This document shows, in pieces, positions 22,904-56,620 of a stretch of DNA of 64,000 bases; the first letter of the stretch is position 1; each line of letters opens with the position of its first letter. This DNA comes from Cantharellus purpuraceus (Eukaryota; Basidiomycota; Agaricomycetes; Cantharellales; Hydnaceae). The stretch spans positions 124,001 to 188,000 of the forward strand of contig JALBUN010000029.1 of assembly GCA_025174535.1 (NCBI GenBank), in the 5' to 3' direction. Both the position numbers and the translations under genes were made by a program. The notes under the pieces were generated by a model. That model was given only the letters and a program-made list of their open reading frames with translations. It searched no databases and was not told the DNA's origin.

Positions 22904-23056
22904 TCCATTACTAATGCTAATTCTATTATTTAGCATTGTCATTTTATTACAAGTCACAAGGTAAATTACAAGTCTCCCCAAAAACCTCCAAAGGAATCAC
23001 TCCACCTGATTTTTCTCCCCTCTGAAATTTATAATCAAAATCATTTCCATTTTTTA

Positions 23057-24586
23057 TACATTGCATTTCCTTTTCCCCTTCCCCTTGTCTACCTCAGGCT
23101 CCGTCTCCGACTCATCATCACTCTCTACATCCGACACCCAATCTTTCTCATCCCCATGTCGAATCCTCGTCCAAAGGGCCATGAACTTCTGCAACTGACG
23201 TAACTCAGCTGTCCGCTGACCCTCCAGAACCTCCTCCCGTTTCATTGTCTTCACCAAGTCCACTAGCAACCCCTCCGTCCACCGGAGGTGCTCCAACTGC
23301 AGGTTAACCAGCCGGATAAGCTGGCCCATGGTACTATTGGGCGCAGAGATGCGCCCCGTACCTGCACTGGTCGTTGCCCCTTCCGATCCGACACCGCTAC
23401 CCCCGGCTGCCACAGCACCTGTCTCTGTCTGCCACTTTTTGGTCAGATGACCTTCTGATTCTTTCTCTGCCCCTCCTTGTACCACTAGTCGGGGCTTGAC
23501 ACTCCAACTCCAGGGATCGAACTTTCCATCGACCCTACACCCTCCTTTCTGACCCCGACAATGATCGCAGGACCAAAGGCAGCGAGTTGGGCCGGTAGGC
23601 CACACACTCCACACCCACATCATGACACAAGTCGCAAATTACACCAGGCCTGCCGAATGGCTCTGTCGGAGCCAGAGCCTTGGGTGGTCCGCTCCTTCTT
23701 GACGCAGCCTCCAAGTGTTCCCTCTCCTCCTCCTTGTCCTGCTGTTCCACTGCCACCTTCTCCATCTCATGCTTGCGAAGCTGGATCGCCAACCTAGCGA
23801 CATGCAGCTCCTTCTTATGGGTTGCCAACACACAACTCTCCGCCTTGCACCATATGACCCTCCGATCTGCCTCCTGCTTCTCCGTATCAGCACTCGGGTA
23901 CGCCTTCAATGAAAAGACCGTGATGTTGAGATTCTTCTTGGTGGTAGCAGCATAAAGCTCCACTCTTTTGCGAGCCTCGACTGCGGCTACCCAAGCCATC
24001 TCCTCGTAACAATTCAAGGTTGGATCCAGCTCCACATCCGTCCTGACATCCACACCTGCCTCAGGCTCTGCATTTGCATCGAGCTCCATATTAGCATTGG
24101 GATCCGCTTCCACCTCCACCCTCTCCACCTCCACTGCTTCATCTTCCTCAGCTGCACCCACTGCAAATAACAGCCATGACTGCAGATGTAACGGCAAGTT
24201 CCCCATAAGGACTGTTGTCGGACAGGTTGACTCTGTCTGCATAATGGAGACAATGGCGACCTCAGGGGTCCCTGCCCATATTGGCACACTCGGACTTCCT
24301 GGGTGACTGGTTGCCCCGGTCACCTCCTCCTCTACCTCCATGGTGGCTTCTAGCTCATGCGCCTGCTCCTCCACTTCCTTCAGTCTCGCGGCCTCCATTG
24401 TGGCCACAAGTTCCTTGACCGTGTGGGCCCTCTTGGCTTTCGCTTCCTTCCTTCTCCATTCCGCCTTCGCCACCTCCTTCCGTCTCCGTTCCTCCTCCTC
24501 TTTCCATCTCTGCTCCTCTCCTTCTGTTGGGCCAAGAGCAACTGCTCAAGCTCAGCCACACTCATGCTTGCCAAAGGGTTTGACAT
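23057..24586 (-). pseudogene. Antisense acidic coiled-coil protein with Zn2Cys6-like cluster (A1 copy)
   Basis: Minus-strand ORF converging on A1 pol. Start MSNPLASMSVAELEQLLLAQ at 24586; a TATA box TATAAAAGG lies at 24625-24617, 39 bp upstream. Order: short conserved N-terminus, charged K/E/R coil, acidic repeats, a conserved middle domain (EEMAWVAAVEARKRVELYA), a cysteine cluster (CDLCHDVGVEC ... CDHCRGQKGGC), a Gly/Thr-rich linker, a leucine-rich coil (IRLVNLQLEHLR) and an acidic tail with final GKGKRKCNV. Frameshifts in the N-terminal coil (about 24470) and at the cysteine cluster (about 23540) break this copy. See A2 and A3 for better ones. Confidence 0.8.
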
Positions 24587-35287: not shown

Positions 35288-36942
35288 ATGTCAAACCCTT
35301 TGGCAAACATGAGTGTGGCTGAGCTCGAGCAGTTGCTTCTGGCCTGACAGAAGGAAGAAGCAGAGGAGCAGAGACAGAAGGAGGAGGAGGAGGAGGCAGA
35401 ACGGAGATGGAAGGAGGAGGAGGAGCAGAGATGGAAGGAGCAGCAGCAGCAGCAGAGATGGAAGGAGGAGGAGGAGGAGCAGAGACAGAAGGAGGAGAAG
35501 GAGCAGAGATGGAAGGAGAGGTGGAATGGAGATGGAAGGAAGAAGAAGCGAAGGCTGAGTGAGCATGCAGGGTCAAGGAGCTTGCAGCTGCAATGGAGGC
35601 CACAAGGCTGAAGGAAGTGGAAGAGCAGGTGCATGAGCTAGAAGCTGCCATGGAGGTAGAGGAGGAGGTGACCGGGGCAGGGGCTATTAGTCACCTGGGG
35701 AGTCTGAGTGTGCCAATATGGGTGGAAACCCCTGAGGTCACCATTGTCTTAATTACATGGATGGAGTCGACCTGTCCAACAACTGTCCCTCCAGTAGGCT
35801 CGCCATTGCATCTGTGGCCATGGCCATTATTTGTGGTGGGTGTGGCTGAAGAAGATGACGTGGTGGAGGTGGAGAGAGCAGAAGCGGATCCCAATGCCAA
35901 CATGGAGCTTGATGCAAATGCAGAGCCTGAGGTGGGTGTGGATGTCGGGACAGATATGGAGCTGGATCTGACCTTGAATTGCTATGAGGAGATGGCTTGG
36001 GTAGCCGCAGTTGAAGCTCACAAAAGGGTGGAGCTATATGCTGCTACCACCAAGAAAAATCTCAAGGTTGTGGTCTTTTCATTGAAGGCGCACCTGAGTG
36101 CTGATACAGAGAAGCGGATGGTGGATCAGAGGGTCATATGGTGCAAGGCAGAGAATTGTGTATTGGTGACTCATAAGAAGGAGCTGCATGTTGCTAGGTC
36201 AGCAATCCGGCTTCACAAGCATGAGATGGAGAAGGCGGTGGTGGAACAGCAGGACAAGGAGGAGGAGAGGGAGCACTTGGAGGCTGTGTCAAGAAGGAGT
36301 GGACCACCCAAGGCTCTGGCTCCAATGGAGCCATTTGGTGGGCCCAGCATGATTTGTGACTTGTGTCATGATGCAGGCATGGAGTGTGTATGGCCCACTG
36401 GCCCAACTTGCCATCTTCAGTCCTGTGATCGTTGTTGGGGTCAGAAAGGAGGGTGTAGGATTGATGGCAAGTTCAATCCCCAAAGTTGAAGTGTCAAGCC
36501 CCAACTAGTGGTACAAGGAGGGGCAGAGAAAGGACCAGAAGGTCATCCCACCAAAAAGTGGCAGACGGAGATGGGTGCTGTGGCAGCTGGGGGTAGCGGT
36601 GTCAGATCAGAAGGAGCAACAACTGGCGCAGGTACAGGGCGCATTTCTGCACCCAACAGTACCGTGGCCCAGCTTATCCAGCTGGTTAACCTGCAGTCAG
36701 AGCACCTCCAGCGGACAGAGGGGTTGTTAGTGGAGTTAGTGAAGACAATGAAATGGAAGGAGGTTCTGGAGGGTCAGCAGACTGCTGAGTTGCATCAGCT
36801 GCGGAAGTTCATGGCCCTCTTGGATGAGGATTTGGACATGGGGGATGAGAAAGATTGGGTGTCGGATGTGGAGAGTGATGATGAGTCAGAGACGGAGCCT
36901 GAGGTAGACAAGGGGAAGGGAAAAAGGAAATGCAATGTATAA
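35288..36942 (+). pseudogene. Antisense Zn2Cys6-like coiled-coil gene (A3 copy), near complete
   Basis: Start MSNPLANMSVAELEQLLLA at 35288, with CATAAAAGG at 35249-35258 upstream. A TGA at 35346 replaces an Arg codon, and a second TGA sits in QS*SVKP at 36487; otherwise the ORF runs 35593-36489 and 36508-36942. It shows the charged coil, the acidic middle (EADPNANMELDANAEPE), EEMAWVAAVEAHKRVELYA, and CDLCHDAGMEC ... CDRCWGQKGGC, which fits C-x2-C-x6-C-x12-C-x2-C-x6-C. The tail is DDESETEPEVDKGKGKRKC. The spacing equals that of fungal binuclear zinc clusters, so DNA binding is likely but unproven. Confidence 0.8.
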
Positions 36943-40495: not shown

Positions 40496-40563
40496 GTTAA
40501 GTCCACAGAAGTCGATGGATAGACGGGGTGATCCATCCTTTTTGTGGACAAATAGGACCAGAG
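40496..40563 (-). pseudogene. Gypsy-A3 RT sliver between two insertions
   Basis: Encodes (minus) ALVLFVHKKDGSPRLSIDFCGLN, continuous with the RT piece starting at 55377 on the other side of Gypsy-A2 and with 39786 across LTR-C. Confidence 0.85.
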
Positions 40564-41090
40564 TGTTATGACTATATTCATTAACGCCCAGATCCCCATC
40601 TGATCCCCTCAGATCCCCGTGCATATGAAATCTATACTCCATTTGGAAACCGCTACGTCTCCATTTTCCTGTCTGATTGTCACCGCCGATTCCGCCCATC
40701 CGTCTCCAGTTCCGATTGATGCATCAGCATCACCATGGGAACCTGGACATCCATCCCCATCAGACTCGGACATACTCATGTAAGGCCATCGGCCTCGGAG
40801 ACCCATCACCAGAGTAATTATTATTAGATTTCGAATATGTATTTAAGTTGCCTGACTGGGGACTTCATTCCCAGTTTGATTATCGAATCACACCTAGCTC
40901 CTAAGTCCGGTCCTAACTCTCTAAGTCATACTCCGCCTCCAAAATCTTGGACACCGGTATTAGTGAGGGCACAGCACATAAGCTGAAGCCAAGTCTGTTC
41001 TGACCCCCACAATGTACTCCGACTCCGACCCAATCTCTGACCCAATCTCTGACCCAACCTCCGACCCCCAATCGGACCCAGTGTGTAACA
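40564..41090 (+). repeat. Gypsy-A2 5' LTR
   Basis: TGTTATGACTATATTC...AGTGTGTAACA. TATTTAAG lies near 40840. Toward the end is a degenerate tandem of (GACCCAATCTCT)-like 12-bp units. A reading frame that continues into gag opens inside this LTR at 41012. Confidence 0.9.
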
Positions 41091-42199
41091 GTATATTCGA
41101 ACTGCCATACTCACTCCTACCAATGCCACGATCCACCGCCAATTCCGAACACGCACGAATCGTCAAGGGACCCGCCCCCAGCATCGACACCATCCCCAAG
41201 GTCGTTGAAGAACCGACGGACCACATAGAGGCCGTCAATGAAGAAGACGACACCCCGCCCTCTCCAAATCTGGCGCAAGCCATCTCTCTGCTCGCTAGCA
41301 GCATCCGTAACCCACAAGCCCCTAAGTCCCGGACCAAGGTCCGAGAACCCAACCCATTCAATGGCTCCGATCTGCGCAAACTCCAGCCGCTCTTGGTGCA
41401 ATGCCGTTGAATTTCCGCGCAACTGCCCCGATGCATTCACATCCGATCGGGTGAAGGTTACCTTTGCCATGTCCTATCTCAAGGGCACCGCACTGGACTA
41501 CTTCGAGCCAGCACTCATGGATGACTCCAATGACCCGATATGGTCAGAGGACTACTCCTACTTCATCTCCGAACTTCGGACCAATTTTGGTCCGTACAAC
41601 CCCAAGGCCGATGCTGAGAATGAACTCGATCGACTTCGGATGAAGGAAAATCACAAAATCGCAAAATACATTGTGAGTTTCCAGCAGCTAGCTCCAAAAG
41701 TCCAATGGGGCAATGCCGCACTCTGATGCCAATACCCAATCCATCGACGCCCATTATTGGGAACGTCAATCCGAGGTCTCCCATGAAAATTCGGCCAACA
41801 ACAAATCAGACAAATCATCGGACAAGACCCCAAAGTCCAACAAGGGGTCCAATAAGCGGGCCACCACCAATTCAGGCCAGAAATCAAACACTGGTAATGC
41901 TGCCGCTTCCAGTTCCGGTCAGAACAACTCCGGCACCAGCAATAACTCTGGAGCTTGCAAGAGTACTCCGGACCTCTCCACCAAGCTGGGAAAGGACGGA
42001 AAACTTACCCAGCAGGAACGCCAGCACTGCATGGACAACAACCTCTGTCTGTTCTGCGGAAAGCCTGATCACCAAGCCAAGGATTGCAACAAGGCAACCT
42101 CGTCTGCAGCAAAGGCAAAGGGCCGCGCCACCAACACCATGACAGACAAGTCCAACGCTAAAGCGATGGACCAAAAAAAATAGTAAGCAGTCCTATAGC
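41012..42199 (+). pseudogene. Gypsy-A2 gag, broken
   Basis: The frame opens at an ATG inside the LTR (MYSDSDPISDPI) and crosses the LTR end. A one-base loss stops it at 41410; the second frame resumes with CPDAFTSDRVKVTFAM and SYLKGTALDYFEPALM. At about 41725 roughly 110 bp of capsid is deleted between CAAT repeats. The zinc knuckle CLFCGKPDHQAKDC is intact near 42050. The PBS ATATTCGAACTG is at 41093-41104. The gag is cut by Gypsy-B at 42199. Confidence 0.85.
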
Positions 42200-42561
42200 T
42201 GTCAGGGTTCAAATAAGTCATATTCTATTTTTAGTATTTTCTCTTGACACCCCTATCAGCACAGCCTGTCAGGGTGCATCTCCCCTATTTCATTGCCCCT
42301 ATCACTTCCCCTATCTTTCCTCCCCTATCTTGGTTCTCCTATCCGTCTCCATCATTTAGTATAAAGACTCACCTTGGTGCAGTGTGATCCCCTCAGCTTG
42401 ATCTCTGAGGATATCCACTGTACCAGGTAAGTCCCATGTATTTATCAGAAACAGCTGTATAGACTGAGGATATCCGCTGTACCAGCTGGCATTATTTCTT
42501 ATTGGCTCTCACTTATTGAGTATCTTGTTGTTGTGGCCTCGTCATCAGCGTCGCCCTCACA
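42200..42561 (+). repeat. Gypsy-B 5' LTR with TATA and predicted RNA start
   Basis: TGTCAGGGTTCAAATAAG...GTCGCCCTCACA. TATAAAG at 42360-42366. AGCTTGATCT at 42395-42404, 35 bp downstream, is the predicted RNA start. Two GAGGATATCC(A/G)CTGTACCAG direct repeats follow in the R/U5 part. Confidence 0.9.
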
Positions 42562-42573
42562 GAAGATCAAGCT
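42562..42573 (+). promoter_or_regulatory. Gypsy-B self-priming PBS
   Basis: GAAGATCAAGCT directly after the LTR; AGATCAAGCT (42564-42573) is the exact reverse complement of AGCTTGATCT at the predicted RNA start. This is the hallmark of self-primed Tf1/sushi elements. Confidence 0.78.
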
Positions 42574-42629
42574 CATAAGACGACCCCACACCTCATAACA
42601 CTTTCCCTATTAACTACTTCACCGATACC

Positions 42630-43772
42630 ATGACCGATCAGCTCCCTGAAGCCTATTGGGACACTCTAGGTGAAAGTGGTGGCTTTCTGCGAGTGTTGTT
42701 CAACACCCAGGCGCAGCAGCTCCAGCAGCTGCAACTCCAGAACCAGCACCTCCAAAGCCAGTTCGCCAATGTCCAGAACAACCTAGCAGATGCTGCCACT
42801 GCTGCCGCCATCGCTGCAGCACAGACCATCTCTCAGACCACCTCATTTCCCACACCTTCTCCTACATCGTCATCCGTTCGCCCAATAAGGGCAGCTGAAC
42901 CAGCCAAATTCAATGGAGATCGTGCAGAGACGGAAGGTTTCATTTGCTCTATCAGGCTTGCCATTGCAGTCCAGCCTACATCTTTCCCAGATGAGCGGAC
43001 CAAGATCCTCTATGCCCTCTCTTTTATGACAGGAGGTTCTGCTGAAATATGGGCGCACAATGAGACACAGGCAGTCATTGACAGGACCTCACTGCTCTCC
43101 ACCTTGGAGGAATTCATTAAGCAGGTGGAGAACACTTTTGGGGACCCTGACCGCTCTCGAACAGCACGAACAAAGTTACACGATCTTAGGATGACACCTG
43201 GCATGTCAGCGGATGAATACACAGCACAGTTTGAGATACTAGCAGGAAGGACTGGGTTTAATGATGCAGCACTGGAAGATGCCTATGCCCGAGGGCTCCC
43301 TGCAATGATTCTTGACAAGATCCATGCACAGCCATCCCTCCCGTCCGATCTCAAGGCATGGAAGGAAGCAGCCTGTCAAATTGACCGCAACCACCGTCAT
43401 CTTCTAGAAGTGAGACGTGCTCAGACTTCCCTCACTCCTGCCCACTCTACCCCATCCTGCCCTCACAGCACTCCGGTCATCTCTGTACCAACTACCTTGG
43501 CAACCTCTAATGGTGCTGCACCTATGGATATTGACTCCAACCGCCATCGCATTGAGACTCGGACGTGCTATAACTGTGGAAAGCATGGCCATATATCCCC
43601 AGCATGCCCTGAACCATGCAAGGAACGTATCTGAGCTGATCTCACACAAACAGCAATTGCAGGCATGATATCAGAGTCAGTAGCAGCTGCACTGAAGGCC
43701 AAGGAAGAAGCGCAGAAGGCAGTAATTCCAAAGCAAGAGGAGAAGCAGGATTTTCAGGCCAGTCAGCAGTGA
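42630..43772 (+). pseudogene. Gypsy-B gag
   Basis: ATG at 42630 (MTDQLPEAYWDTLGES), a Gln/Leu heptad coil (residues about 30-52), an Ala-rich patch, the capsid domain (AEPAKFNGDRAETEGFI, LEEFIKQVENTFGDPDRS, GMSADEYTAQFEILAGR), and a zinc knuckle CYNCGKHGHISPAC at about residues 313-326. A TGA at 43632 replaces an expected Arg; the same frame then runs to 43772. Pol lies in the -1 frame and overlaps this end, so a -1 frameshift may have linked them in the active ancestor. Confidence 0.88.
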
Positions 43773-46700
43773 AGAGCATGCCCTGCCTGACAAACCGGTT
43801 TTCAGTTCTTGAATCATGTACTGTAGGGCTCACAAGCGATATGTTACACGCACACTCCCTTGTCCATCAGACTGAAACCAAAACAGCCATGCCTGAAAAC
43901 CCTTCTCAACTTCCAGCTAAACATGATGACCCTCCTCATCTCTACCTTCGATCTGCAGACATCCGTCGATGTACAAGAATTCCCATGAAAATCCACTCGG
44001 TAGACACTGGATACCCTCTAGCCGTGGATGCACTCCTCGATAGTGGTGCTACAGGAATGTTCATTGATGCAGAATATGTCAAAGCAGAGAAACTTCGAAC
44101 ATGCCCTCTACCACGTGCCATACCTGTTTATAACATTGATGGGACCCCAAATGAAGCAGGTTCAATCAAGGAAGAAGTTGATCTCATCTGCACATATGGG
44201 ACCCATACCGAACATGCCACATTTTCAGTCACAAGCCTGGGAACCTTTGGCATAATTGTTGGGCACACCTGGCTCGTGAAGCACAACCCAGAGGTAGACT
44301 GGCGTACAGGAAAGGTACAGATGACTCGCTGCCCTGATTCATGTGGAGAAGTACCAGAACACAAAGAGCATTCGCTTGGTACAACTCCTTCAAATGGCAA
44401 GAACTCACACAGGCAACCCCAATACGAGGGAGACCGAACATTTGTTATCTTTGTAGAAGAAGACTTGGAGAATATCTATGCTGGTTCAACAGTTTCTCAA
44501 CAGCTTGCACAGAAGGCTGCAGAATCTACTCCAGTCAAAACCTTTGAGGAGATTGTCCCAAAGGCATACTGGGGATTTAAGGATGTTTTTGCAAAGGAGT
44601 CCTTTGACCAACTTCCACCTCGAAAACTGTGGGACCATGCTATTGAACTCACTCCAGGAGCGCAACCCTTCAGCACAAAGGTCTATCCAATGTCCCCAAA
44701 TGAGCAGAAGGAGTTGGACACATTCCTTGAGGAGAACCTACGGAATCATCGTATACGTCCTTCCAAGTCACCCATGGCATCCCCTGTCTTTTTTGTGAAG
44801 AAGAAGGACGGTAATCTTCGTTTTGTGCAAGACTACTGCAAGCTGAATGATATCACAATCAAGAATGCCTACCCACTACCCCTGGTACCAGACATCGTGA
44901 ATAAAATTGCCGCAGCCAATGCCAAGTACTTTACCAAGCTTGACATCCGATGGGGATATAACAATGTGCGTATTAAAGAGGGCGATGAGTGGAAGGCAGC
45001 CTTTCGAACCAATTGTGGTCTATTTGAACCCCTGGTCATGTTCTTTGGTCTCACAAACAGCCCAGCAACCTTTCAGACGATGATGAATGGCATTTTCAAG
45101 GAGCTCATTGATGATGGCACTATGGTAGTGTTCATGGACAACATCCTCATTTTCACTGAATCCCTAGACGCTTGTTCGGAATCATGTCAGTATACAATAT
45201 TCTGATGTATAGGAGATATACATCAGGATTTCAATGATACATAAAGCCAGGGAGTTACAATTTGGATATCTTAAAAGATTTTTGATGTGTGAAATTTTCA
45301 TAAATATAAACATATATTCTATATTTTAATAAACTTTAAAAGATGAGATATTTGGTTGAGATGAACATAATTATTTACATGGATATAATAGGAATGTATA
45401 TATGAATATAATTGGTATTATATAGGGTATTTAGATATACAAATACCAGGTGGGGATTAAAGATAGTTCAAATTATGTTACAAGTATTGTATAAGAAAGA
45501 ATCAATGATATTTGGATGTTCCCTCAAGGGAGTTGCCACCACTAAATGGGGAAAAAACAATTATTTTTGAGAATTATGCCAAAATATCAAAATATGTTTT
45601 AATCTAGTATATTGTGTAAAATTTGAGAATCATGTTGAAATATGAAAATAAGTTTGAATTGAAGTGTATTGTATAAAATTTGAGGAAAATAGGTTGTACA
45701 TACGTATTTGTTGTATTTCTGAACAAGTGTCCTAGAACAACACTACATGATCGTGCAATCTGTCCTTGAAATTCTTCGGGCCAACCACCTGTACCTCAAA
45801 CCAGAGAAATGCCTTTTCTCGCAACAGAAGGTAGATTATCTTGGATTGATTCTCTCACAGGGACAGGTAGCTATGGACCCAGTTAAGGTGGCCGGAGTCA
45901 GAGACTGGCCCACACCGCGCAATGTGACAGAAGTCAAATCCTTCTTGGGTTTCATCAATTTCTATTGTCGTTTCATTGAGGACTTCTCACATATCGCAAG
46001 GCCTCTGAATCGGTTAACAAAGGCAGATACACAGTGGTCCTGGATACCTGATGGCCCAGAACAAGAAGCCTTTGATAAACTCAAGCAGCTTGTCACGTCA
46101 ACTCCAATCCTTGTCCTCCCAGATCAAACCAAGCATTTTCGACTAGAGACAGATGCTTCAGCATATGCAACAGGTGCTGTTCTATCTCAACTCTGTGACG
46201 ATGAGAAATGGAGGCCGGTAGGTTTTGTATCCAAGAGCCTTTCAGATGCAGAGTGCAACTATGCCATCCATGATAAGGAATTGCTCTCAGTCATCTGTGG
46301 ACTAGAAGAATGGCACCACATCTTGGAAGGGACCAAATACAAGATTGAAATCCTTAATGACCATCAAAACCTCACATATTTCCGTACAGCTCAGAATCTC
46401 AATCGTCGACAAGCTCGCTGGTCACTATACCTTTCTCGTTTTGACTTTGAACTGATCCACCGTCCTGGATGACATTCAGCCAAACCTGATGCCCTCTCAC
46501 GACATGTAGATCATAAGTGGGGAGGAAGATAACCAGAACCAGGTTCTTCTTGGCCCTGAGCTGTTCCACATCGATGCAACATCCACCTATCCAGGGCCAG
46601 AAGCTCAAATGATCACAGGAGAAGGAGACATATTCCTGGAACGTGTGTGGAACTGCACCAACAGAGATGAAAAGGTTGTAAAGGCTCTTAAGGAACTTGG

Positions 46701-48232
46701 TCCCTCTTGGAATTTACGAGGACAGGAATGGACCGAGGAGAATGGACTCGTCCTCTATCGTGGCAAGGTATATGTCCCTCTTGACCCAAAATTGCGCCAT
46801 GACATTGTAAGGGCACACCACGATACTCACATTACAGGTCACCCTGATCGCTGGAGAACAACAGAACTTGTATCCCGCAGCTACTGGTGGCCTGGATTTG
46901 GACGATACATTGCCAAATATGTCAAGGGATGTGACCTCTGCAATCGGACAAAAACTTTCCCTGCTCCTCCTATGGGTAAACTCCTGCCTAATCGTGTCCC
47001 AGATTGGAGGTGGCAAGTGATATCTGTTGACCTTATTGTAGAACTACCCATCAGCCATGGCTATGATGCACTCCTTGTCGTTGTGGACCGTCTTTCCAAA
47101 TGAGCACATGTTATCCCTACCACCTCTGCATCAACTCCATAGGAGTTGCACAACTTTTCTGAGACCATGTGTGGAAACACCACGGCCTTCCTGAGGAGAT
47201 CATCAGTGACCGTGGCACCCAGTTTGTCTCTCAATTTATGTGCGAGCTCAATAAGCTTTTGGGGATCAAGGTTGCAGCATCCACAGCATATCATCCACAA
47301 ACCGATGGTCAGACGGAAAGGGTCAATCAAGAAATTGAACAATACTTGAGGCTTTTCGTCAATCAGCGCCAGGATGACTGGATTGAGTGGGTTCCTCTTG
47401 CCGAATTCACATACAACAACCGCATCCACTCCTCCACGCAATCAACCCCCTTCATGCTTGATACAGGCCAACACCCAAGGCTTGGGCTAGAGCCAATCCA
47501 AGAGACACAACTTGAAGCACTGGAAGAATTCACTGAGCGTATGGAGATGGCCACCACTGAGGCTTGCTCTGCCCTGGAAAAGGCAGCAGATGATATGGCA
47601 CGATTCTATGATGCCCATCGGCAAGCAGCCCCAGTATACAAACTTGGTGACAAGGTCTGGCTCAATGCACAAAATATCACCACCACCCATCCAACCAAGA
47701 AACTTGATCACAAATGGTTAGGACTGTATGTGATTAATAAGGTGGTCTCACGAAATGCCTATGGCCTACGACTTCCCCCAATCTTTGGCCGCACTCATCC
47801 AGTGTTCTCTGTTGTCTTACTCCATCCTTATGAAAAGGATCCCATCCCTGAATGCCAGTCATCTCCTCCACCACCTCCAGTCATTTGAGATGGAGTACAG
47901 GAATATGAAGTTGAGAAGATCCTTGACAGCAGAGTTTTCCGAGGAAGACTGGAATACCTGGTGTGTTGGAAGGGCTATGGAGCTGCTGACAACCTCTGGA
48001 TCCCAGCTAAGGATGCCAGTGGGGCTAGAAGGCGCATTGCAGACTTCCATCGGGAAAATCCTGAAGCCCCAAGGCGTATTTTGGCAGCCACCTATGCGGC
48101 TCTTCCCTTCAGACGCTTTGAGAACTTCACAGAACCTCCCAAACAGGTCCTCTTTGATTGGACAGCTGGCAGGAACCCAACACGTGGTATTGGACACATT
48201 TCAGAGCCGCAGAATAGGCACAGTGAAGCTTA
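43769..48232 (+). pseudogene. Gypsy-B pol: protease, RT, RNase H, integrase, chromodomain
   Basis: Protease DALLDSGATGMFID near 44022; RT with FTKLDIRWGYNNVRI and FMDNILIF at about 45135, where FMDD is expected (catalytic D to N). The 562-bp insert follows. RT thumb/RNase H: LETDASAYATGAV, NYAIHDKELLS. Integrase: HHDTHITGHPDRWRT, CDLCNRTK, SVDLIVELP, SDRGTQF, GQTERVNQE (all D, D, E kept). Chromodomain: YEVEKILDSR, LEYLVCWKGYGAADNLW. Stops at 46471, 47101 and 47886 are TGA where CGA Arg fits the family; a frameshift lies near 47150. Confidence 0.9.
45169..45730. mobile_element. AT-rich 562-bp insertion with short inverted ends
   Basis: Flanked by CCTAGA (45163-45168 and 45731-45736). Ends are imperfect inverted repeats, CGCTTGTTCGGAA against ACACTTGTTCAGAA. 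Removing it and one flank restores TESLEQHYMIVQSVL in frame. No ORF. It could be a small DNA transposon; the 6-bp duplication does not settle the class. No second copy is seen. Confidence 0.7.
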
Positions 48233-48339
48233 GCGCTCACCAAATTCATCCATACCGAAATTCCACTAATTGTATATAAGCCAGTGAATCCACTTCCCCT
48301 TCCTCAGTAAAACCATCATCGTTCACTACCCAACCCACC

Positions 48340-48735
48340 ATGCCTTACCAGTCTGAATCCACCCCTCTACACTCACTCCGTTCCTACCCATCAATCACTT
48401 GGTCAGTTGACTCAAGGGATACTGCACATGCTGTAGAGGATTATAACCTCCCATCTCCACCTCCACAAGTTCATTTCCCCTTCTGGCATCGTAATCCATC
48501 AAGACACCAGACATACTACATCGGGGACCCTCTATTCATCGGCAACTATGACATACCATACGCCTTCCAAGGGCTCACCGGTAAAGTCACCTATGAGGGA
48601 GGGGAGATGATACTTGGAGCAGTTTTCAGCACTAACAATCCCATATCCCCAGAGAGTTCACCATCCCACTTTAATCCAAGGCAGAGAAGAGTCACCATCA
48701 ACACTTGTCATGGGCTCTACTTTGGCAGAGAGTGA
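48340..48735 (+). CDS. Gypsy-B ORF3, unknown function
   Basis: 131 codons between pol and the 3' LTR, an unusual extra gene for a Tf1/sushi element. Start MPYQSESTPLHSLRSYPS; core TWSVDSRDTAHAVEDY, a PPPQVHFPFW strip and YYIGDPLFIGNYDIPYAF. No signal peptide or membrane segment, so not an envelope. The core aligns by eye with the E-ORF (WSLDTEDYQKY, PPPRVK, YAIGDPIFFHNSVEPYTF). The frame is uninterrupted while gag and pol carry stops. A TATA-like TATATAAG sits at about 48275 upstream. Confidence 0.7.
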   Translation: MPYQSESTPLHSLRSYPSITWSVDSRDTAHAVEDYNLPSPPPQVHFPFWHRNPSRHQTYYIGDPLFIGNYDIPYAFQGLTGKVTYEGGEMILGAVFSTNNPISPESSPSHFNPRQRRVTINTCHGLYFGRE

Positions 48736-48829
48736 GAAGGGACCTTGCAGAGTGCTTCAGGGTGTGTCTCTCTTGAGATGGATGGGATGATAGTGCATAT
48801 CGAGACGACATGCATTAAGAGGGAGGTGA

Positions 48830-49190
48830 TGTCAGGGTTCAAATAAGTCATATTCTATTTTTAGTATTTTCTCTTGACACCCCTATCAGCACAGCCTGTC
48901 AGGGTGCATCTCCCCTATTTCATTGCCCCTATCACTTCCCCTATGTTTCCTCCCCTATCTTGGTTCTCCTATCCGTCTCCATCATTTAGTATAAAGACTC
49001 GCCTTGGTGCAGTGTGATCCCTCAGCTTGATCTCTGAGGATATCCGCTGTACCAGGTAAGTCCCATGTAATTATCAGAAACAGCTGTATAGACTGAGGAT
49101 ATCCGCTGTACCAGCTGGCATTATTTCTTATCGGCTCTCACTTATTGAGTATCTTGTTGTTGTGGCCTCGTCATCAGTGTCGCCCTCACA
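48830..49190 (+). repeat. Gypsy-B 3' LTR
   Basis: TGTCAGGGTTCAAATAAG...GTCGCCCTCACA, 361 bp, preceded by the purine tract AAGAGGGAGGTGA. Confidence 0.92.
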
Positions 49191-52100
49191 ATAGCCTCCA
49201 TACGGGCTGAGGGCTGTGTTGGTACTCCCTGTACGACAAACGAGGTCTGCCTGAATGCATCCGCTCTTTCCCACTCCGACTCCCTTACCCTCCTCGCCCA
49301 CTCCAACTCCATTCCCGATACCGCTATTCAAGCGTTAATTGACTCCAGTTCTACTCACTGTTTCCTCGATTCCTCTTTTTCCAATTTACATAAACTCCAT
49401 ACATACACCATAACTCCAATACCACTCCAATTATTTGATGGCACTACTAATGCTGTTGTTTCACGAGCTATAGATTTGTCTATCCGTTTTTCTGTCGGAG
49501 AAATCCAGAACCTTACATTCTATGTTACTCCGCTTGACTCCAGCTGTTCTGTGGTTCTTGGACATAACTGGCTCACCCGCTACAATCCATTGATTGACTG
49601 GGCATTGGGCCATATCACATTCCGTTCTCCAGTACAAGCTGTGTCATCCCCGATGTCACCAGCAACTTTAGGTGCGAAATTATCCTCCGCCTCCGCTGAC
49701 TCCACTCCGATAGATACTCCATCTACCCCTCAGTTCATATCGATGGTGGATGCTATGGTCTTCACCAGACTAAGCAAGCTGGACGGTTCTCACATTCCAG
49801 GTTCACCTCTCTGATCCAATATTCCTCGCTGCTTGTTCCGCCCGATCCACTCCACCGGACCTCTCTATGGTTCCCAAGGAGTATCATGAGTTCGCCGACG
49901 TGTTCAGCAAGTCTAAAGCCGACTCCCTAGCGGAACACCGACCATACGATCTCAAGATCAAACTGGATGACAACTCCACCCCTCCGCTTGGCCCTATCTA
50001 CTCACTATCACAAAAAGAGCTATTGGCCCTCCGAACATTCATAGACGAGAACTTGGCCACAGGCTTCATCCACCCATCCCTATCTCCTCATGGAGCTCCG
50101 GTCCTATTTGTCCGCAAAAAGGATGGATCACTCTGTCTATGCGTCGACTTCTGTGGACTCAACAAAATCACCAAGAAAGACTGATACCTGATACCCCGCA
50201 CCGCGGACCTACTCGAGAGTCCTCTAAAGGCTAAGATCTACTCCAAAATAGATCTCTGACATGCCTACCATCTAGTCTGTATCCGAGAAGGCGATGAATG
50301 GAAAACGACCTTCCGCACACGATATGGATCTTTCAAGTGGTGTGTCATGCCCTTCGGTCTAACCAATGCTCCGGCCGCTTTCCAGAGGTTCATGAATGAT
50401 ACCTTCGCCAACCTTCTCGATGTGACTGTCCTCATTTACTTAGATGACATTCTGGTATATTCGGAATGAAGAAGAACATCGGACACATGTCCGAGAGGTA
50501 CTCCGACGTCTCCGAAAACATGGCCTCTTCGCCCACACTGACAAATGCGAATTCCACTCCGATTCAGTTGAATACCTAGGCTATATCCTCTCCCCAGCAG
50601 GATTAACAATGTCCGATGACAAAATCAAAGCCATACAGGAATGGCCAGAACCCCGGAAAGTCAAGGACGTACAGTCCTTCCTCGGGTTCGCCAACTTCTA
50701 CTGCCGCTTTATTCATGGCTACTCTGATATCACTGTTCCACTCACCCGACTCACTAGGAAGGGTATCCAATGGAATTTCACTGACGAATGTAGACAGAGT
50801 TTTGAGACCTTGAAAAAGGCCTTTACTTCCACTCCGATACTGACTCATTGGGTTCCAGATGTTCCCATCCTATTAGAGACCAACGCCTCCGACTATGCAC
50901 TTGCTGCAATCCTGTCCATCATCTCTCCGGACGACGGACAAGTCCACCCGATCGCTTTTCACTCGCGTACATTTATGCCCCCAAACTGAACTATGACATC
51001 CATGACAAAGAGCTCCTTGCCATATATGAAGCCTTCCGGATATGGAGACACTACCTTGAGGGTCCCTCCGATCCAGTGGACGTCATAACTGACCACAAGA
51101 ACTTGGAATACTTCTCCACAACGAAAGTGCTCACCCGGAGACAGGTCCAATGGTCCGAGTACCTATCTCAGTTCAACCTCATTATCTGTTTCCGTCCTGG
51201 TCGACTCGGAGCAAAGCCCGATGCGTTAACTAGACGATGGGACGTCTACCCTAAAGAGGGGAATAGCAACTATGCCACTGTAAACCCCCACAACTTTCGT
51301 CCTGTGTTTACTAACGAGCAGCTGGCATCGTCCCTACGAGCATCCACTCTCATGACTCCCACTCTCCGAGCTGTCACCATTATGGACATCGACCAATCCA
51401 CTCCAACATCCGCTCATCACTCCGATCTGATCCCATTGTGGTTAAACACTTGGACAACCCTTCCAATCCGAAATGGTCACTTGACCCCGAAGGACACCTC
51501 CAACACAACAACCGGATATACATCCCTGACGCCAACGGCCTCCGACTCCGAGTTTTGCAGTATTATCATGATCACCTGATCTCTGGCCACTTCGGGCAAA
51601 ATCGCACACAAGGATTAATCCGACGAGACTATGTATGGCCAAAAAATGCGGGAATACATTCAACACTACTGTAACTCCTGCACCACATGTATGCGCTCAA
51701 AATCGCAAAGGCACAAACCCTACGGAACGCTCAAACAACTTCCGATCCCAGAGCAACCATGGAACTCCATCTCCATGGATTTCATAGAGAAGCTCCCCCC
51801 ATTGCTCGGATATGACACCATACTCGTGATTGTCGACAGGTTCACCAAACAGTCACTATTCATTCCGACGCATGACACCATCACCTCCGCCTCGCTAGCT
51901 AAATTGTTCATTCTCCATGTATTCTCTAAACACAGAGTCCCATCGCATGTCACATCCGATCGGGGTTCGGAGTTCATGTCCTCCTTCTTCTGCACATTAG
52001 GAAAGGCTCTCAACATGAAGCTCCATTTCACCTCCGGATACCATCCTGAAGGAGACAGACAAACGGAACGAATGAATCAGTCACTGGAACAATATCTCCG

Positions 52101-52858
52101 AATCTATTGTAACTATCAACAAGACAACTGGGCTGATCTACTTCCAATCACAGAGTTTGCCTACAACAATGCTCCAAATGCAACTACCGGCATCTCTCCA
52201 TTCTTTGCTAATAAAGGCTACCATCCAAACATCTCTGCCCACCCCAAGAAAGAACTTGCCTCCACCAAAGCCCACCAATTCATAACCGACCTTGATCAAC
52301 TACACCAACATCTCCGAGAGACCATCTCCGATGCCCAGAAACAATATCAAGTCTCCACAGACTGATGCCGCATTCCGGCTCCGGACCTGCAAATCAGAGA
52401 CAAAGTATTTGTTAAGGCCGAACACTTCCGGACCACCCGTCCATCAAAGAAACTCTCCGAGAAATACTTAGGTCCTTATGAGGTCATTGCTCGCGTGGGC
52501 AGCAGGTCTTTCACCCTCCGCCTCCCAGACCACTTCCGAGCAGTTCATCCGGTCTTCCATATATCAATGCTCGAACCCGCTACTACGAATGAGATCTCCG
52601 GTCGCACGCAACCCCCACCTCCCCCGATCATCATTGAAGGAGACAATGAATATGAGATCTCGGAGATCCTGGACTTGAAGATTGACCGTCAATACAAGTG
52701 CAAGCTCCAGTACTAAGTCAAATGGACTGGATATGAAGGCACTGATGAAGAGTCCTCATGGATCTCCACGTCCGAACTCAATCACGCATCCGAATCCGTG
52801 TCTGATTTTCACTCTGCTTATCCAGACAAACCTGGCCCTCTTATGAATCTTTAAGTTC
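49191..52858 (+). pseudogene. Gypsy-A2 pol: protease, RT, RNase H, integrase, chromodomain
   Basis: Protease [12 protein letters not shown] (DSG read here as DSS, a key-residue change) near 49340. RT starts with [20 protein letters not shown] (49870); KIDL then TGA at 50258; [24 protein letters not shown] near 50440, then a 2-bp deletion. RNase [12 protein letters not shown]. Integrase zinc region [18 protein letters not shown] and CTTCMRSKSQ, then SMDFIEKLP, SDRGSEF, RQTERMNQS. Chromodomain YEISEILDLK, VKWTGYEGTDEESSW, stop after PGPLMNL at 52855. Domain order and DDE are complete in this copy. Confidence 0.9.
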
Positions 52859-53053
52859 GATTACTAATGCTAATTCTATTATTTTGCATCACCATTTTAT
52901 TACAAGTCAAGGGAAATTACCAGCCTGCTCAAAAAAAAAAAAAAGAAATCTCCGAAGGAATATCACTCCACCTCATTCTTTCTCCATTCTGAAATTTATA
53001 ATCATTTTCATCTTTATTTTATACATCGCGTTTCCTTTTCCCCTTTCCCTTAT

Positions 53054-54718
53054 CTACCTCAGGCTCCGCCTCCGACCCTCATCACTCTCTACATCCGACA
53101 CCCAATCCTTCTCATCTCCCATGTCTGAATCCTCGTCCAATGGGGCCATGAACTTCCGCAACCGACGTAACTCGGCTGTCTGACGACCCTCCAGAACCTC
53201 CTTCTGTTTCATCGTCCTCACCAAGTCTACTAACAACCCCTCCATCCGCCGAAGGTGCTCCAACTGCAGGTTAACCAGCCTGATAAGCTGGCCCACAGTG
53301 CTATTGGGTGCAGAGATGCGCCCCGTACCTGCACTGGTTGTTGCCCCTTCCGATCTGACACCGCTACCCCCGGCTGCCACAGCACCCGTCTCAGTCCGCC
53401 TCTTTTTTGTCAGACAACCCTCCGATTCTTTCTCTGCCCCTCCTTGTACCACTAGTCGGGGCTTGATGCTCCGACTCCGGGGATTGAACTTTCCATCGAT
53501 CCTACACCCTCCTTTCTGACCCCGACAACGATCGCAGGACCGAAGGCGGCGAGTTGGGCCGGTAGGCCACACGCACTCCACACCCGCATCACGACATAAG
53601 TTGCAAGTTATGCTGGGTCCGCCGAATGGCTCTGTTGGAGCCAGAGCCTTGGGTGGTCCGCCCCTCCTCACTGCGGCCTCCAAGCATTCCCTCTCCTCCT
53701 CCTTGTCCTGCTGTTCTGTGGCCGCCTTCTCCATCTCACGCTTCCGAATCTGAATTGCCGACCTTGCAACATGCAGCTCCTTCTTACAGGTCACCAACAC
53801 GCGACTCTCTGCCTTGCACCATATGACCCTCCGGTCCACCTCCCGCTTCTCAGTATCAGCACTCGGGTAGGCCTTCAGTGAAAGGACCGTGACGTCAAGG
53901 TTCTTCTTGGTGGTAGCGGCATAGAGCTCTGCCCTTTTGCGAGCCTCGACCGCAGCTACCCAAGCCATCTCCTCGTAAGAATTCAAAGTAGGATCTGGCT
54001 CCACATCCGTCCCAACATCCATGCCCGCCTCAGGCTCCGCATTTGCGTCGAGCTCCATATTGGCATTGGGATCTGCTTCCACCTCCACCCTCTCCATCTC
54101 CGCCACATCATCTTCCTCAGCTGCCCCCAACTCAAATAAGGGCCGTGCCCACGGACGTAACGGCGAGTCCTCTGCAGTGACAGTCCTCGAACGAGTCGCC
54201 TCCGTCCGTGTAACGGAGATGATGGCGACTTCCAGGGTCCCTGGCCATATGGGCACGCTCGGACTTCCTGGGTGGCTGGTTTTCCCTGCCCCAGTCACCT
54301 CCTCCTCTACCTCCATGGCCGCCTCTAACTCGTGTGCCTGCTCCTCCACTTCCTTCAGTCTCGTGGCCTCCATCGCTGCCACAAGTTCACCTTGCGGGCC
54401 CTCTCTGCCTTTGCTTCCTCCTCTTTCCTTCTCCATTCCGTCTGGGCCGCCTCTTTCCGTCGCTCCTCCTCCTCCTCCTTCCGCCTCCGCTCTGCCTCCT
54501 CCTCCTTCCGCCTCCATTCCACCTCCTCCTCCTCCTTCCACCTCCCGCTCCTCCTCCTCCTCCTCCTTCCGCTTCCGCTCTGCCTCCTCCTCCTCCTTCC
54601 ATCTCTGTTCTGCTTCCTCCTCCTCTTTCCATTTCCGCTCCTCTTCCTCTTCCTTCCGTCGGGCCAAGAGCAACTGCTCCAGCTCGGCCACGCTCATGCT
54701 TGCCAAAGGGTTTGACAT
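53054..54718 (-). CDS. Antisense Zn2Cys6-like coiled-coil gene (A2 copy), longest ORF
   Basis: One uninterrupted minus-strand frame from MSNPLASMSVAELEQLLLAR at 54718 for about 554 codons. Order: conserved N-terminus; K/E-rich coil and Gly/Glu repeat (about residues 20-90); acidic region; EEMAWVAAVEARKRAELYAA; CNLCRDAGVEC ... CDRCRGQKGGC (C-x2-C-x6-C-x12-C-x2-C-x6-C) around residue 390; basic KKRRTETG patch; leucine-rich coil IRLVNLQLEHLRRMEG; acidic tail. A small indel near 53075 shifts the last ~20 codons away from the shared end DKGKGKRKCNV. It converges with pol, with only about 200 bp between the two ends. The promoter is TATAAAAGG at 54756-54748. Function is unknown; a DNA-binding regulator is the simplest inference. 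Confidence 0.82.
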   Translation of the reverse strand: MSNPLASMSVAELEQLLLARRKEEEEERKWKEEEEAEQRWKEEEEAERKRKEEEEEEREVEGGGGGGMEAEGGGGRAEAEGGGGGATERGGPDGMEKERGGSKGREGPQGELVAAMEATRLKEVEEQAHELEAAMEVEEEVTGAGKTSHPGSPSVPIWPGTLEVAIISVTRTEATRSRTVTAEDSPLRPWARPLFELGAAEEDDVAEMERVEVEADPNANMELDANAEPEAGMDVGTDVEPDPTLNSYEEMAWVAAVEARKRAELYAATTKKNLDVTVLSLKAYPSADTEKREVDRRVIWCKAESRVLVTCKKELHVARSAIQIRKREMEKAATEQQDKEEERECLEAAVRRGGPPKALAPTEPFGGPSITCNLCRDAGVECVWPTGPTRRLRSCDRCRGQKGGCRIDGKFNPRSRSIKPRLVVQGGAEKESEGCLTKKRRTETGAVAAGGSGVRSEGATTSAGTGRISAPNSTVGQLIRLVNLQLEHLRRMEGLLVDLVRTMKQKEVLEGRQTAELRRLRKFMAPLDEDSDMGDEKDWVSDVESDEGRRRSLR

Positions 54719-54747
54719 CGTTGAGGATAAGACCTCAATCATGCCCC

Positions 54748-54756
54748 TCCTTTTAT
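54748..54756 (-). promoter_or_regulatory. TATA box of the antisense gene
   Basis: TATAAAAGG on the minus strand, 38 bp before the ATG at 54718, in the gap between the 3' LTR and the ORF. Equivalent boxes are TATAAAAGG at 24625-24617 (A1) and CATAAAAGG at 35249-35258 (A3). An upstream ATG (ATGATTGAG) is present in A2 and A3 but is CTG in A1, so MSNPL is the likelier start. Confidence 0.65.
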
Positions 54757-54859
54757 ATGTCTCCAGACCCCCAGTATAACTCCGACCGCGCCCAATCGTC
54801 TCACCTATTCAATCCACGGACATGAGGCCTCAGAGGCTCGGCCTTAAATGGAGAGATAC

Positions 54860-55376
54860 TGTTATGACTATATTCATTAACGCCCAGATCCCCGTCCGAT
54901 CCACTCAGATCCCCGTGCATATGAAATCTATACTCCATTTGGAAACCGCTACGTCTCCATTTTCCTGTCCAATTGTCACTGCCGATTCCGCCCATCCGTC
55001 TCCGGTTCCGATTGATGCATCAGCATCACCATGGGAACCTGGACATCCGTCCCCATCAGACTCGGACATACTCATGTAAGGCCCTCGGCCTCGGAGATCC
55101 ATCACCGGAGTAATTATTATTAGATTTCAAAATATGTATTTAAGTTGCCCGACTGGGGACTTCATTCCCCAGTTTGATTATCGAATCACGCCTAGCTCCT
55201 AAGTCCAGTCCTAACTCTCTAAGTCATACTCCGTCTCCAAAATCTTGGACACCAGTATTAGTGAGGGCGCAGCACATAAGCTGAAGCCAAGTCCATTCTG
55301 ACCCCCACGATGTACTCCAACTCCAACCCAACCTCCGACCCAATCTCTGACCCCCAATCGGACCCAGTGCGTAACA
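54860..55376 (+). repeat. Gypsy-A2 3' LTR
   Basis: TGTTATGACTATATTC...AGTGCGTAACA, 517 bp, preceded by AAATGGAGAGATAC. TSD CAGAG follows. Confidence 0.92.
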
Positions 55377-56620
55377 CAGAGCTCCATGGGGGGATAAGGA
55401 TGGGCGGATGAAGCCCATGGCATCTATGAATGTTCAGAGAGCCAGTAGCTCTTTTTGGGATAGCAAGTAGATAGGGCCAAGTGGAGGGGTGGAGTTGTCA
55501 TCCAACTCAATCTTGAGATCATATGGCCGGTGTTCCACTAGGGAGTTGGCTTTAGACTTGCTGAACATGTTGGCAAACTCATGATGCTCCTTAGGAACCA
55601 TAGATAGGTCTGGTGGAGTTGATTGGGTGGAATGGGCAGTGAGGAGCATTGGATCGGAGAGGTGAACCTGGAACATGTGAGAGCCATCCAGTTTGCTAAG
55701 TCTGGCAAAGACCATAGCATCCACCATTGATATAGACAGAGGGGTAGACAGAGTATCTATTGGAGTGGAGTCAGCAGAGGCAGAAGATAATTTCACACCT
55801 ATAGTTGCTGGTGATGTCAGGAATGACACAGCCTGCACTGGAGAACGGAATGTGATATGGCCCTTTGCCTTTGCTGCTGATGAGGTTGCCTTGTTGCAAT
55901 CCTTGGCTTGGTGGCCAGGTTTTCCACAGAACAGGCAGAGGTTGTTGTCCATGCAGTGCTGGTGTTCCTGCTGGGTAAGTTTTCCATCCTTCCCCAGCTT
56001 GGTGGAGAGGTCCAGAGTACTCTTGCAAGCTCCAGAGTTATTGCTGGTTCCAGAGTTGTTCTGACTGGAACCGGAAGTGGTGGTGTTACCAGTGTTTGAC
56101 TTCTGGCCTGAGTTGGTGGTGGTCTTCTTATTGGACCCCTTGTTGGACTTTGGGGGCTTGTCCAATGATTTGTCCAATTTGTTGTTAGCCAAATTTTCGC
56201 AGGAGACCTCAGATTGATGTTCCCAATAATGGGTGTCAATGGATTGGGTAAGCTTGCAAAGCTTTACCAAAGTATCTGGCTTACTGACACGTGATATCTC
56301 ATCCTTGATGTGGGATGGGAGACCAACATAAAATTGGTGTCAGAGTGTGGTGTCGCCTCATTGGATTTCAGGGCTAGCTGCTGGAAACTCACAATGTATT
56401 GTGTGATTTTGTGATTTTCCTTCATCTGAAGTCAATTGAGTTCATTCTCAGTGTTGACCTTAGGGTTGTAAGGACCAAAATCGGTCCGAAGTTCAGAGAT
56501 GAAGTCAGAGTAGTCTTCTGACCATATCAGGTCGTTGGAGTCATCCATGAGCGCTGGCTCGAAGTAGTCCAGTGCAGTGCCCTTGAGATAGACTGTAGCC
56601 CTGTCCTCACCAGTCATCAA
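55377..56620 (-). pseudogene. Gypsy-A3 gag fused to RT start, protease lost
   Basis: From 56620 down: capsid end (YLKGTALDYFEPALMDD, DFGPYNPKVN), zinc knuckle CLFCGKPGHQAKDC at about 55940, then AAKAKG joined in frame to [11 protein letters not shown], skipping the whole protease region present in A1 and A2. The ORF then enters the RT N-terminus ([37 protein letters not shown]) and runs on to the A2 insertion site. The N-terminal third of gag is absent: similarity stops at about 56597 with no LTR. Confidence 0.85.

What the first reader, a model, noticed from the sequence alone, without database searches (positions are those of the whole stretch)
53054..54756. A chromovirus that carries its own antisense gene for a Zn2Cys6-type protein
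All three Gypsy-A copies hold, between the chromodomain and the 3' LTR, an ORF on the opposite strand with a TATA box about 38 bp before the ATG (54756, 24625, 35249). The protein has a conserved start, charged coil, leucine-rich coil, acidic tail and the cysteine pattern C-x2-C-x6-C-x12-C-x2-C-x6-C, the spacing of fungal binuclear zinc-cluster regulators. In A2 the frame is open for about 554 codons although gag and pol are broken. Convergent transcription with pol and a probable DNA-binding product suggest a self-encoded regulator: LTR control, silencing escape or target choice. The spacing and TATA are seen; the role is inference.
Basis: partly seen in the sequence, partly recalled or inferred. 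Interest (0 to 1): 0.88.

Follow-up and report, generated by a model that had tools for sequence, protein, structure and literature searches.

The report
Jumping gene with conserved antisense gene
A very abundant fungal retrotransposon carries, on the strand opposite its usual genes, an extra gene that natural selection has kept as a protein with a zinc-cluster-like cysteine motif, which suggests a self-made nuclear factor, although its function is untested.

Summary
The antisense ORF is real and behaves as a gene of the element. In 43 copies its frame holds 0.53 stops per copy over 436 codons, against means of 6-17 in the other five frames. With CpG transitions left out, pN/pS is 0.288 (0.237-0.351), close to integrase at 0.247, and shared changes are 11 nonsynonymous:35 synonymous against 71:55 private (p=2e-4). 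A TATAAAA precedes the ATG in 38 of 39 located copies, in a strongly conserved stretch. The six cysteines are kept in 255 of 258 cells. Weaker: PF00172 misses its cut-off, and a circular-permutation idea did no better than shuffles, so 'Zn2Cys6-type' rests on spacing. [quoted passage not shown] What looks new is a cysteine-cluster, coiled-coil product with codon-level evidence of selection. Reader corrections: of the window's three copies only this one is open throughout, and it is atypical; it is a full-length element, 40564-55376, split by a nested Gypsy.

The parts
40559..40563 (.). target-site duplication CAGAG, left
40564..41067 (+). 5' LTR of the element (inner end approximate), TGTTATGAC...
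   Evidence: 94.5% identical to the 3' LTR over 494 columns
41238..42183 (+). gag pieces (Retrotrans_gag; a CCHC-like box by eye), interrupted by the nested insertion that follows
   Evidence: ORFs; Pfam PF03732 for 41238-41726
42200..49190 (+). nested second Gypsy element (not part of the antisense gene), LTRs 42200-42561 and 48830-49190, duplication ATAGC
49191..52854 (+). rest of pol (RT, RNase H, integrase, SH3-like and chromodomain region), broken in this copy, with two stops after 51631 before the end of the frame
   Evidence: chromodomain and SH3_Tf2-1 shown by Pfam in sister copies L039 and L033
52855..53053 (.). about 200-bp convergent intergenic stretch between the pol stop and the antisense stop, little constrained (diversity 0.050-0.063)
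53054..54718 (-). antisense accessory ORF from the conserved ATG (554 codons, MSNPLASMSVAELEQLLLA...)
53504..53605 (-). six-cysteine motif, residues 372-405, C-x2-C-x6-C-x12-C-x2-C-x6-C
53147..53299 (-). leucine-rich coil, one predicted helix of 51 residues (pLDDT blocks 86-96 over most of it)
54365..54658 (-). Glu/Lys/Arg-rich stretch made of a roughly 10-codon repeat (EEEEAERRRK-like) that varies in number between copies; read partly in another frame in this copy
54719..54778 (-). putative antisense core promoter: TATAAAA at 54757-54751, 39 bp before the ATG
54860..55376 (+). 3' LTR, TGTTATGAC...TAACA
55377..55381 (.). target-site duplication CAGAG, right
23054..24586 (-). copy A1 of the antisense ORF, frameshifted; TATAAAA at 24625
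35288..36880 (+). copy A2 of the antisense ORF, two TGA and a frame change; no TATAAAA (far end approximate)

Best explanation
It is an antisense accessory gene (aORF-3R type) of a high-copy Ty3/Gypsy chromovirus in a fungus, between pol and the 3' LTR and convergent with pol. Shown here: a protein-coding frame kept by purifying selection while the family multiplied, at a strength like that of integrase, and a conserved TATA-bearing upstream stretch. Inferred: the gene is transcribed from that promoter, independently of the 5' LTR. Inferred: the product is a nuclear protein with a zinc-bound six-cysteine cluster, a long C-terminal helical coil that could dimerise, and an acidic then basic tail. 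Inferred, most likely role: it binds nucleic acid, most plausibly the element's own DNA or the integration complex, and tunes the element's expression or integration, as proposed for the plant antisense ORFs.
For: Frame (codons set in register to the window copy): 0.53 stops per copy over residues 119-554, 24 of 43 copies with none there; the other five frames average 6.3-17.0 stops and 0 of 43 are open. Over the whole frame, 38 of 41 stops are TGA and 34 of 41 fall at four codons (20, 292, 391, 421), as expected if CGA decays to TGA after insertion. Selection, CpG transitions left out: pN/pS 0.288 (95% bootstrap 0.237-0.351), integrase 0.247 (0.195-0.313), RT 0.281 in 16 copies. Sites shared by 4 or more copies N:S 11:35 against private 71:55, p=2.4e-4; integrase behaves the same, 1:18 against 32:18. 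Indels shared by two or more copies: 5 of 5 are multiples of three in the ORF, 3 of 13 in the neighbouring intergenic stretch, p=0.0065. Promoter: TATAAAA in 38 of 39 located copies; diversity of the 60 bp before the ATG 0.013, as at second codon positions 0.014, against 0.075 at fourfold sites. Cysteines 255 of 258. Coil: confident 51-residue helix. 12 of 39 located copies are open from ATG to stop.
Against: No transcript or protein evidence was available. With CpG transitions counted, the contrast between shared and private changes vanishes (163:114 against 82:58) and pN/pS is 0.366: the timing test depends on leaving out the decay-prone sites. 10 of 43 copies carry a frame change and 26 of 43 at least one stop. 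PF00172 is below cut-off in the full protein (8.1 of 21 bits) and as an isolated segment (16.7 and 17.2 bits). The cysteine segment is not more constrained than the rest (pN/pS 0.327, CI 0.19-0.67), so selection is shown for the ORF as a whole, not for the zinc motif in particular. AlphaFold2 gave pLDDT under 55 there. CCG/CGG triplets, the usual zinc-cluster half-site (recalled), are only weakly enriched in the LTR (20 against 14.6 expected; 37 of 1000 shuffles reach it) and are not better retained than other CpGs. A sense-strand frame that shares third positions also shows an excess of synonymous shared changes (17:25, p=0.11 against the antisense frame), though all 43 copies have at least 3 stops in it. 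The indel test does not separate the ORF from the LTR (p=0.13) and gave 0 of 6 shared multiples of three for the integrase-chromodomain stretch, whose alignment of 33 copies is spoiled by other insertions, so it lacks a working positive control.
Confidence: 0.5

Rival explanations
1. The protein is real but is not a DNA-binding regulator: it works in the particle or with RNA (a nucleic-acid chaperone, assembly or nuclear-entry factor), using the charged coils, with the cysteines as a structural zinc site.
For: Much of the protein is charged low-complexity or coil; the cysteine segment is no more constrained than the rest; the typical tail is KGKGKRKR-like, which fits nuclear entry as well as binding.
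Against: The six-cysteine spacing is that of zinc clusters and is kept in 255 of 258 cells; the gene has its own upstream TATA stretch rather than being expressed with gag-pol (expression itself not seen).
Confidence: 0.25
2. The antisense transcript, not the protein, matters: convergent transcription gives double-stranded RNA that sets silencing or copy number, and the ORF is incidental.
For: Convergent arrangement with pol; conserved TATA stretch; such RNA roles are discussed for plant antisense ORFs (PMC7264820).
Against: Codon-level selection and stops confined mainly to decay sites, and frame-preserving shared indels, need a protein.
Confidence: 0.07
3. A recently captured host gene carried as a passenger, without a function for the element.
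For: Zinc-cluster spacing as in host regulators; the genome has 19 places over the Zn_clus cut-off; no relative of the antisense protein was found elsewhere, whereas integrase has 5208 among 5260 candidates.
Against: Selection like that on pol across diverged copies; none of the 19 Zn_clus places coincides with an ORF place listed.
Confidence: 0.08
4. Chance or mirror ORF: an open antisense frame produced by composition or by a sense-strand gene.
For: The Glu-rich repeat of the window copy is open in both strands (sense ORF 54021-54779).
Against: Sense frames hold on average 6.3-12.8 stops per copy over the unique region and none is open in any of 43 copies; selection acts in the antisense frame.
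Confidence: 0.02

Closest known systems
Antisense additional ORFs between pol and 3' LTR (aORF-3R): maize Grande gene23, rice RIRE2, Silene Retand ORF4, bean PvRetro13 (PMC7264820, parts 1 and 2 of 3 read; PMC11963269, passages)
   Same: Position between pol and the 3' LTR, opposite strand, kept in most copies of their families; own promoter reported for Grande; suspected nuclear or DNA-binding product of unknown role.
   Different: Those hosts are plants; the products named have TRP28, SMC or no known domain. Here the host is a fungus, the element has a chromodomain, and the product has a six-cysteine motif and coil. Homology was not tested.
brtn, the antisense gene of Boty-like retrotransposons of Botrytis cinerea (Zhao et al. 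2011, Virology 417:248; only title and citing passages seen)
   Same: A fungal Gypsy element whose gag-pol has a CHROMO domain, with an antisense additional gene.
   Different: Whether BRTN has a cysteine cluster or is related could not be checked: its sequence and paper are not in the tools. Botrytis is an ascomycete.
Fungal Zn(II)2Cys6 regulators, Pfam PF00172 (Gal4 type)
   Same: Cysteine spacing C-x2-C-x6-C-x12-C-x2-C-x6-C; a coil further on (recalled as typical of Gal4-type proteins).
   Different: Profile score below cut-off; motif at residues 372-405 of 554 rather than N-terminal; the basic CxxCRxxKxxC half comes second, not first.
HBZ of HTLV-1 (as cited in PMC11963269, passage)
   Same: Antisense gene of a reverse-transcribing element, encoding a nuclear protein.
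   Different: Resemblance of arrangement only; no sequence relation claimed or tested.

Membership tests
Ty3/Gypsy chromovirus | LTRs with TG...CA ends and a short target-site duplication | tested here: met
   517-bp LTR TGTTATGAC...TAACA, CAGAG both sides in the window; L033 7892 bp with GGTGA both sides
Ty3/Gypsy chromovirus | gag, protease, RT, RNase H, then integrase | tested here: met
   Pfam on L033 pieces (gag, protease, RNase H, integrase) and window pieces (RT, RNase H, integrase at 29.8 bits, under its cut-off of 32.6)
Ty3/Gypsy chromovirus | chromodomain at the integrase C-terminus | tested here: met
   PF00385 37.4 bits after SH3_Tf2-1 in L039
Antisense accessory ORF (aORF-3R) | between pol and 3' LTR, opposite strand | tested here: met
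Antisense accessory ORF (aORF-3R) | present and conserved in most copies of the family | tested here: inconclusive
   Integrase found beside the ORF in 40 of 43 copies, but copies were chosen by the ORF: 41 of the 43 come from the 77 scored of 1431 candidates.
Antisense accessory ORF (aORF-3R) | coding constraint like that of gag-pol | tested here: met
   pN/pS 0.288 against 0.247 for integrase, CpG transitions left out
Antisense accessory ORF (aORF-3R) | transcribed from its own promoter | not testable with these tools
   only the conserved TATA stretch was seen
Zn(II)2Cys6 (PF00172) | six cysteines with zinc-cluster spacing | tested here: met
   255 of 258 cells
Zn(II)2Cys6 (PF00172) | score over the family cut-off | tested here: not met
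   8.1 bits in the whole protein, 16.7 and 17.2 as isolated segment, cut-off 21; no hit at E 0.1 in the L033 protein
Zn(II)2Cys6 (PF00172) | basic residues between cysteines 2 and 3 that read DNA (recalled) | tested here: inconclusive
   first half CNLCRDAGVEC is not basic; the basic half CDRCRGQKGGC is second. Swapped-halves constructs reached 17.9-22.3 bits, but 2 of 10 cysteine-preserving shuffles reached 21.5 and 28.3
Zn(II)2Cys6 (PF00172) | two zinc ions bound by six cysteines | not testable with these tools
   AlphaFold2 model unreliable there
brtn of Boty | sequence relation to BRTN | not tested
   no BRTN sequence in reach

The most novel reading that the evidence does not exclude
A retrotransposon makes, from its own antisense promoter, a zinc-cluster transcription factor (possibly with the two half-clusters in swapped order) that recognises its own LTR or internal DNA and controls its own expression or choice of target: a self-encoded regulatory circuit in a chromovirus.
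Probability: 0.3. Interest if true: 0.85.

Novelty: new variant of a known kind. Interest (0 to 1): 0.62.

Why it matters
The role of antisense ORFs in LTR retrotransposons is an open question; a 2020 review (read) and a 2025 study (abstract and passages) both call it unknown. This family gives that question a fungal chromovirus with many copies, codon-level selection, a conserved promoter-like stretch and a small, expressible cysteine-cluster domain. A binding assay could therefore show whether a retroelement encodes its own regulator. It also warns that zinc-cluster-like 'genes' in fungal annotations may belong to mobile elements (inference).

Tried and rejected
Circular permutation of Zn2Cys6: three constructs with swapped halves scored 17.9, 21.7 and 22.3 bits, but 4 of 10 cysteine-preserving shuffles also hit Zn_clus, at 28.3, 21.5, 19.1 and 11.2 bits, so the score shows cysteine spacing only. 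Kept as a possibility, not as a result.

Zinc-cluster target sites in the LTR: 20 CCG/CGG against 14.6 expected, 37 of 1000 shuffles as high, no better retention: not convincing.

Homologues outside this genome: none in three searches. The two protein searches were flooded with candidates (7992 and 7996 scored), probably by low-complexity words, so this absence is weak; the integrase control had 5208 hits among 5260 candidates, including Trametes and Cyclocybe names. Integrase too gave no relatives in viral contigs, so that collection says little. PDB by sequence: 6 weak matches, best E 0.97, five of them in the low-complexity N-terminal part.

Structure: one AlphaFold2 job, mean pLDDT 55.5; only the coil is reliable, so no fold search was made.

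One search analysed the antisense ORF in a wrong frame by an off-by-one slip (13-26 stops per copy); replaced. The promoter and terminator scan uses bacterial patterns and says nothing here.

Novelty: ten searches of the held open-access library; among the titles and abstract starts listed I saw no zinc-cluster protein encoded antisense in a retrotransposon. Zhao et al. 2011 did not appear in these listings; it was met only as a reference in papers opened. A fungal chromovirus survey (PMC2864245, passages) mentions an additional ORF of unknown function in a figure legend, orientation not given; a Laccaria TE paper (PMC3411680) has none of the terms tried.

Full report
What is there. The window lies in a 40.15-Mb genome of 50 contigs. 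Among the listed relatives of its integrase, two bear organism names, Trametes and Cyclocybe, so the host is probably an agaricomycete fungus (inference). The minus strand of 53054-54742 is an open frame of 562 codons; the conserved start is the ATG at 54718, which leaves 554 codons. It lies between a convergent pol gene, whose frame ends at 52854, and a 517-bp LTR at 54860-55376. The copy is one full-length insertion: an LTR at 40564, another ending at 55376, and CAGAG on both sides. A second Gypsy element sits in it at 42200-49190 with its own duplication ATAGC. A sister copy, L033, is complete without nesting: 7892 bp, GGTGA on both sides, LTRs 19 of 487 different. Pfam finds gag, protease, RNase H, integrase and an SH3-like domain in L033 and a chromodomain in L039, so it is a chromovirus.

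Copies. A genome search gave 134 matched stretches from the 77 candidates scored, out of 1431 first-look candidates. I could read 43 copies: 40 elsewhere in the genome and 3 in the window. 41 of them are among the better matches, not a random sample. Integrase was found beside the ORF in 40 of the 43; the three misses include one at a contig end (L048) and one that my own cut shortened (A1).

Is it a gene? (a) Frame: with codons set in register, over residues 119-554 the antisense frame has 0.53 stops per copy, and 24 of 43 copies have none. The other two frames of that strand average 16.6 and 17.0, the three sense frames 9.8, 6.3 and 12.8, and no copy is open in any of them. Over the whole frame, 17 of 43 copies have no stop, 10 of 43 show a frame change, 38 of 41 stops are TGA, and 34 of 41 lie at four codons, the pattern of CGA decay. 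(b) Selection: with CpG transitions left out, pooled pN/pS is 0.288 (95% bootstrap over codons 0.237-0.351), integrase 0.247 (0.195-0.313, 40 copies) and RT 0.281 in 16 copies; with them counted the values are 0.366, 0.275 and 0.313. All six segments of the ORF are below 1. (c) Timing: outside CpG transitions, sites whose minor allele is in four or more copies show 11 nonsynonymous and 35 synonymous changes, private sites 71 and 55 (p=2.4e-4); integrase shows 1:18 and 32:18. Selection acted while the family multiplied and relaxed after insertion. If CpG transitions are counted the contrast disappears (163:114 against 82:58), presumably because recurrent decay makes many copies share the same change. 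(d) Indels: the 5 gap events shared by two or more copies are all multiples of three, against 3 of 13 in the adjacent intergenic stretch (p=0.0065); against the LTR the difference is not significant (5:0 against 8:6, p=0.13), with private events included the ORF has 9 of 14, and the integrase-chromodomain alignment, spoiled by insertions, gave 0 of 6. Caveat: copies are related and sites were not placed on a tree. The sense frame that shares third positions also shows some excess of synonymous shared changes (17:25), not significantly different from the antisense frame (p=0.11), but it has at least 3 stops in every copy.

Promoter-like stretch. TATAAAA stands upstream of the ATG in 38 of the 39 copies whose start was located; the exception is window copy A2. 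It starts 39 bp upstream in both window copies that have it. Diversity outside CpG columns is 0.013 in the 60 bp before the ATG and 0.015 from there to the LTR, against 0.014 at second codon positions, 0.075 at fourfold sites, 0.050-0.063 in the pol-ORF gap and 0.029 in the LTR as a whole. These differences were not tested for significance, and single 100-bp windows of pol and LTR are nearly as low. The polypurine tract that primes plus-strand synthesis should lie next to the LTR (recalled), so part of this constraint may serve the sense strand; the 60 bp next to the ATG are the better evidence. AATAAA or ATTAAA boxes follow the stop within 157 bases in all 12 uninterrupted copies, at variable distance; no chance control was made.

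The protein. Twelve of 39 located copies are open from ATG to stop, with 548-752 residues, mainly because a repeat of about ten codons (EEEEAERRRK-like) varies in number. The six cysteines are kept in 255 of 258 cells. A 51-residue C-terminal stretch is predicted as one confident helix. The typical tail is acidic and ends KGKGKRK-like. The window copy departs from this in the repeat and at the tail, so it should not be used as the type.

Is it Zn2Cys6? The spacing fits. The Pfam model does not: 8.1 bits in the whole protein, 16.7 and 17.2 for the isolated segment, cut-off 21. The first cysteine half matched the second half of the model, which suggested swapped halves; swapped constructs scored 17.9, 21.7 and 22.3 bits, but cysteine-preserving shuffles did as well, so this is not evidence. 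The genome has 19 places over the Zn_clus cut-off and none coincides with an ORF place. A structure of the segment was not obtained.

How it most likely works. Shown: an antisense protein gene under selection with a conserved TATA stretch. Inferred: an independent antisense transcript; a nuclear zinc-cluster, coiled-coil protein; binding to the element's own DNA or integration complex. The weak CCG/CGG excess in the LTR is compatible with this but does not support it much.

What is known. Vicient and Casacuberta 2020 (PMC7264820; parts 1-2 of 3 read, which hold the text and the start of the reference list) review antisense ORFs between pol and the 3' LTR in plant elements and in Boty of Botrytis, with unknown role and suggested nuclear function. 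The 2025 Retand paper (PMC11963269; abstract and passages) reports antisense ORFs with a probably DNA-binding TRP28 domain in 97% of clusters. Zhao et al. 2011 on brtn is known to me here only by title and citing passages. The kind is therefore known, also in a fungal chromodomain element. A cysteine-cluster product is not mentioned in the listings and passages I saw.

Verdict. A well-supported, selected antisense accessory gene: a new variant of a known kind, with an untested but directly testable DNA-binding hypothesis.

Noticed in passing
42200-49190: A second Gypsy element, nested in gag of the studied element, with nearly identical LTRs (98%) and duplication ATAGC, so a younger insertion.
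   Followed up: partly
LTR copies of the family, 54860-55376 and elsewhere: Each CpG of the window LTR survives in only 40-71% of the copies aligned there, and stops are mainly TGA at a few codons: strong CpG decay, as expected of cytosine methylation of silenced copies (inference).
   Followed up: partly
54365-54658 and L017, L050: A coding minisatellite of about 30 bp (EEEEAERRRK-like) is greatly expanded in some copies (649- and 752-residue proteins).
   Followed up: partly
G000, whole genome: First-look candidates number 1431 for the antisense protein and 1263 for integrase, so the family may be a large part of this 40-Mb genome; only 77 and 150 candidates were scored.
   Followed up: no
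G000:C50:53724-56950: A copy almost identical to the window copy (integrase 100% after rounding; upstream stretch 148 of 148): a recent relative or a segmental duplicate.
   Followed up: no
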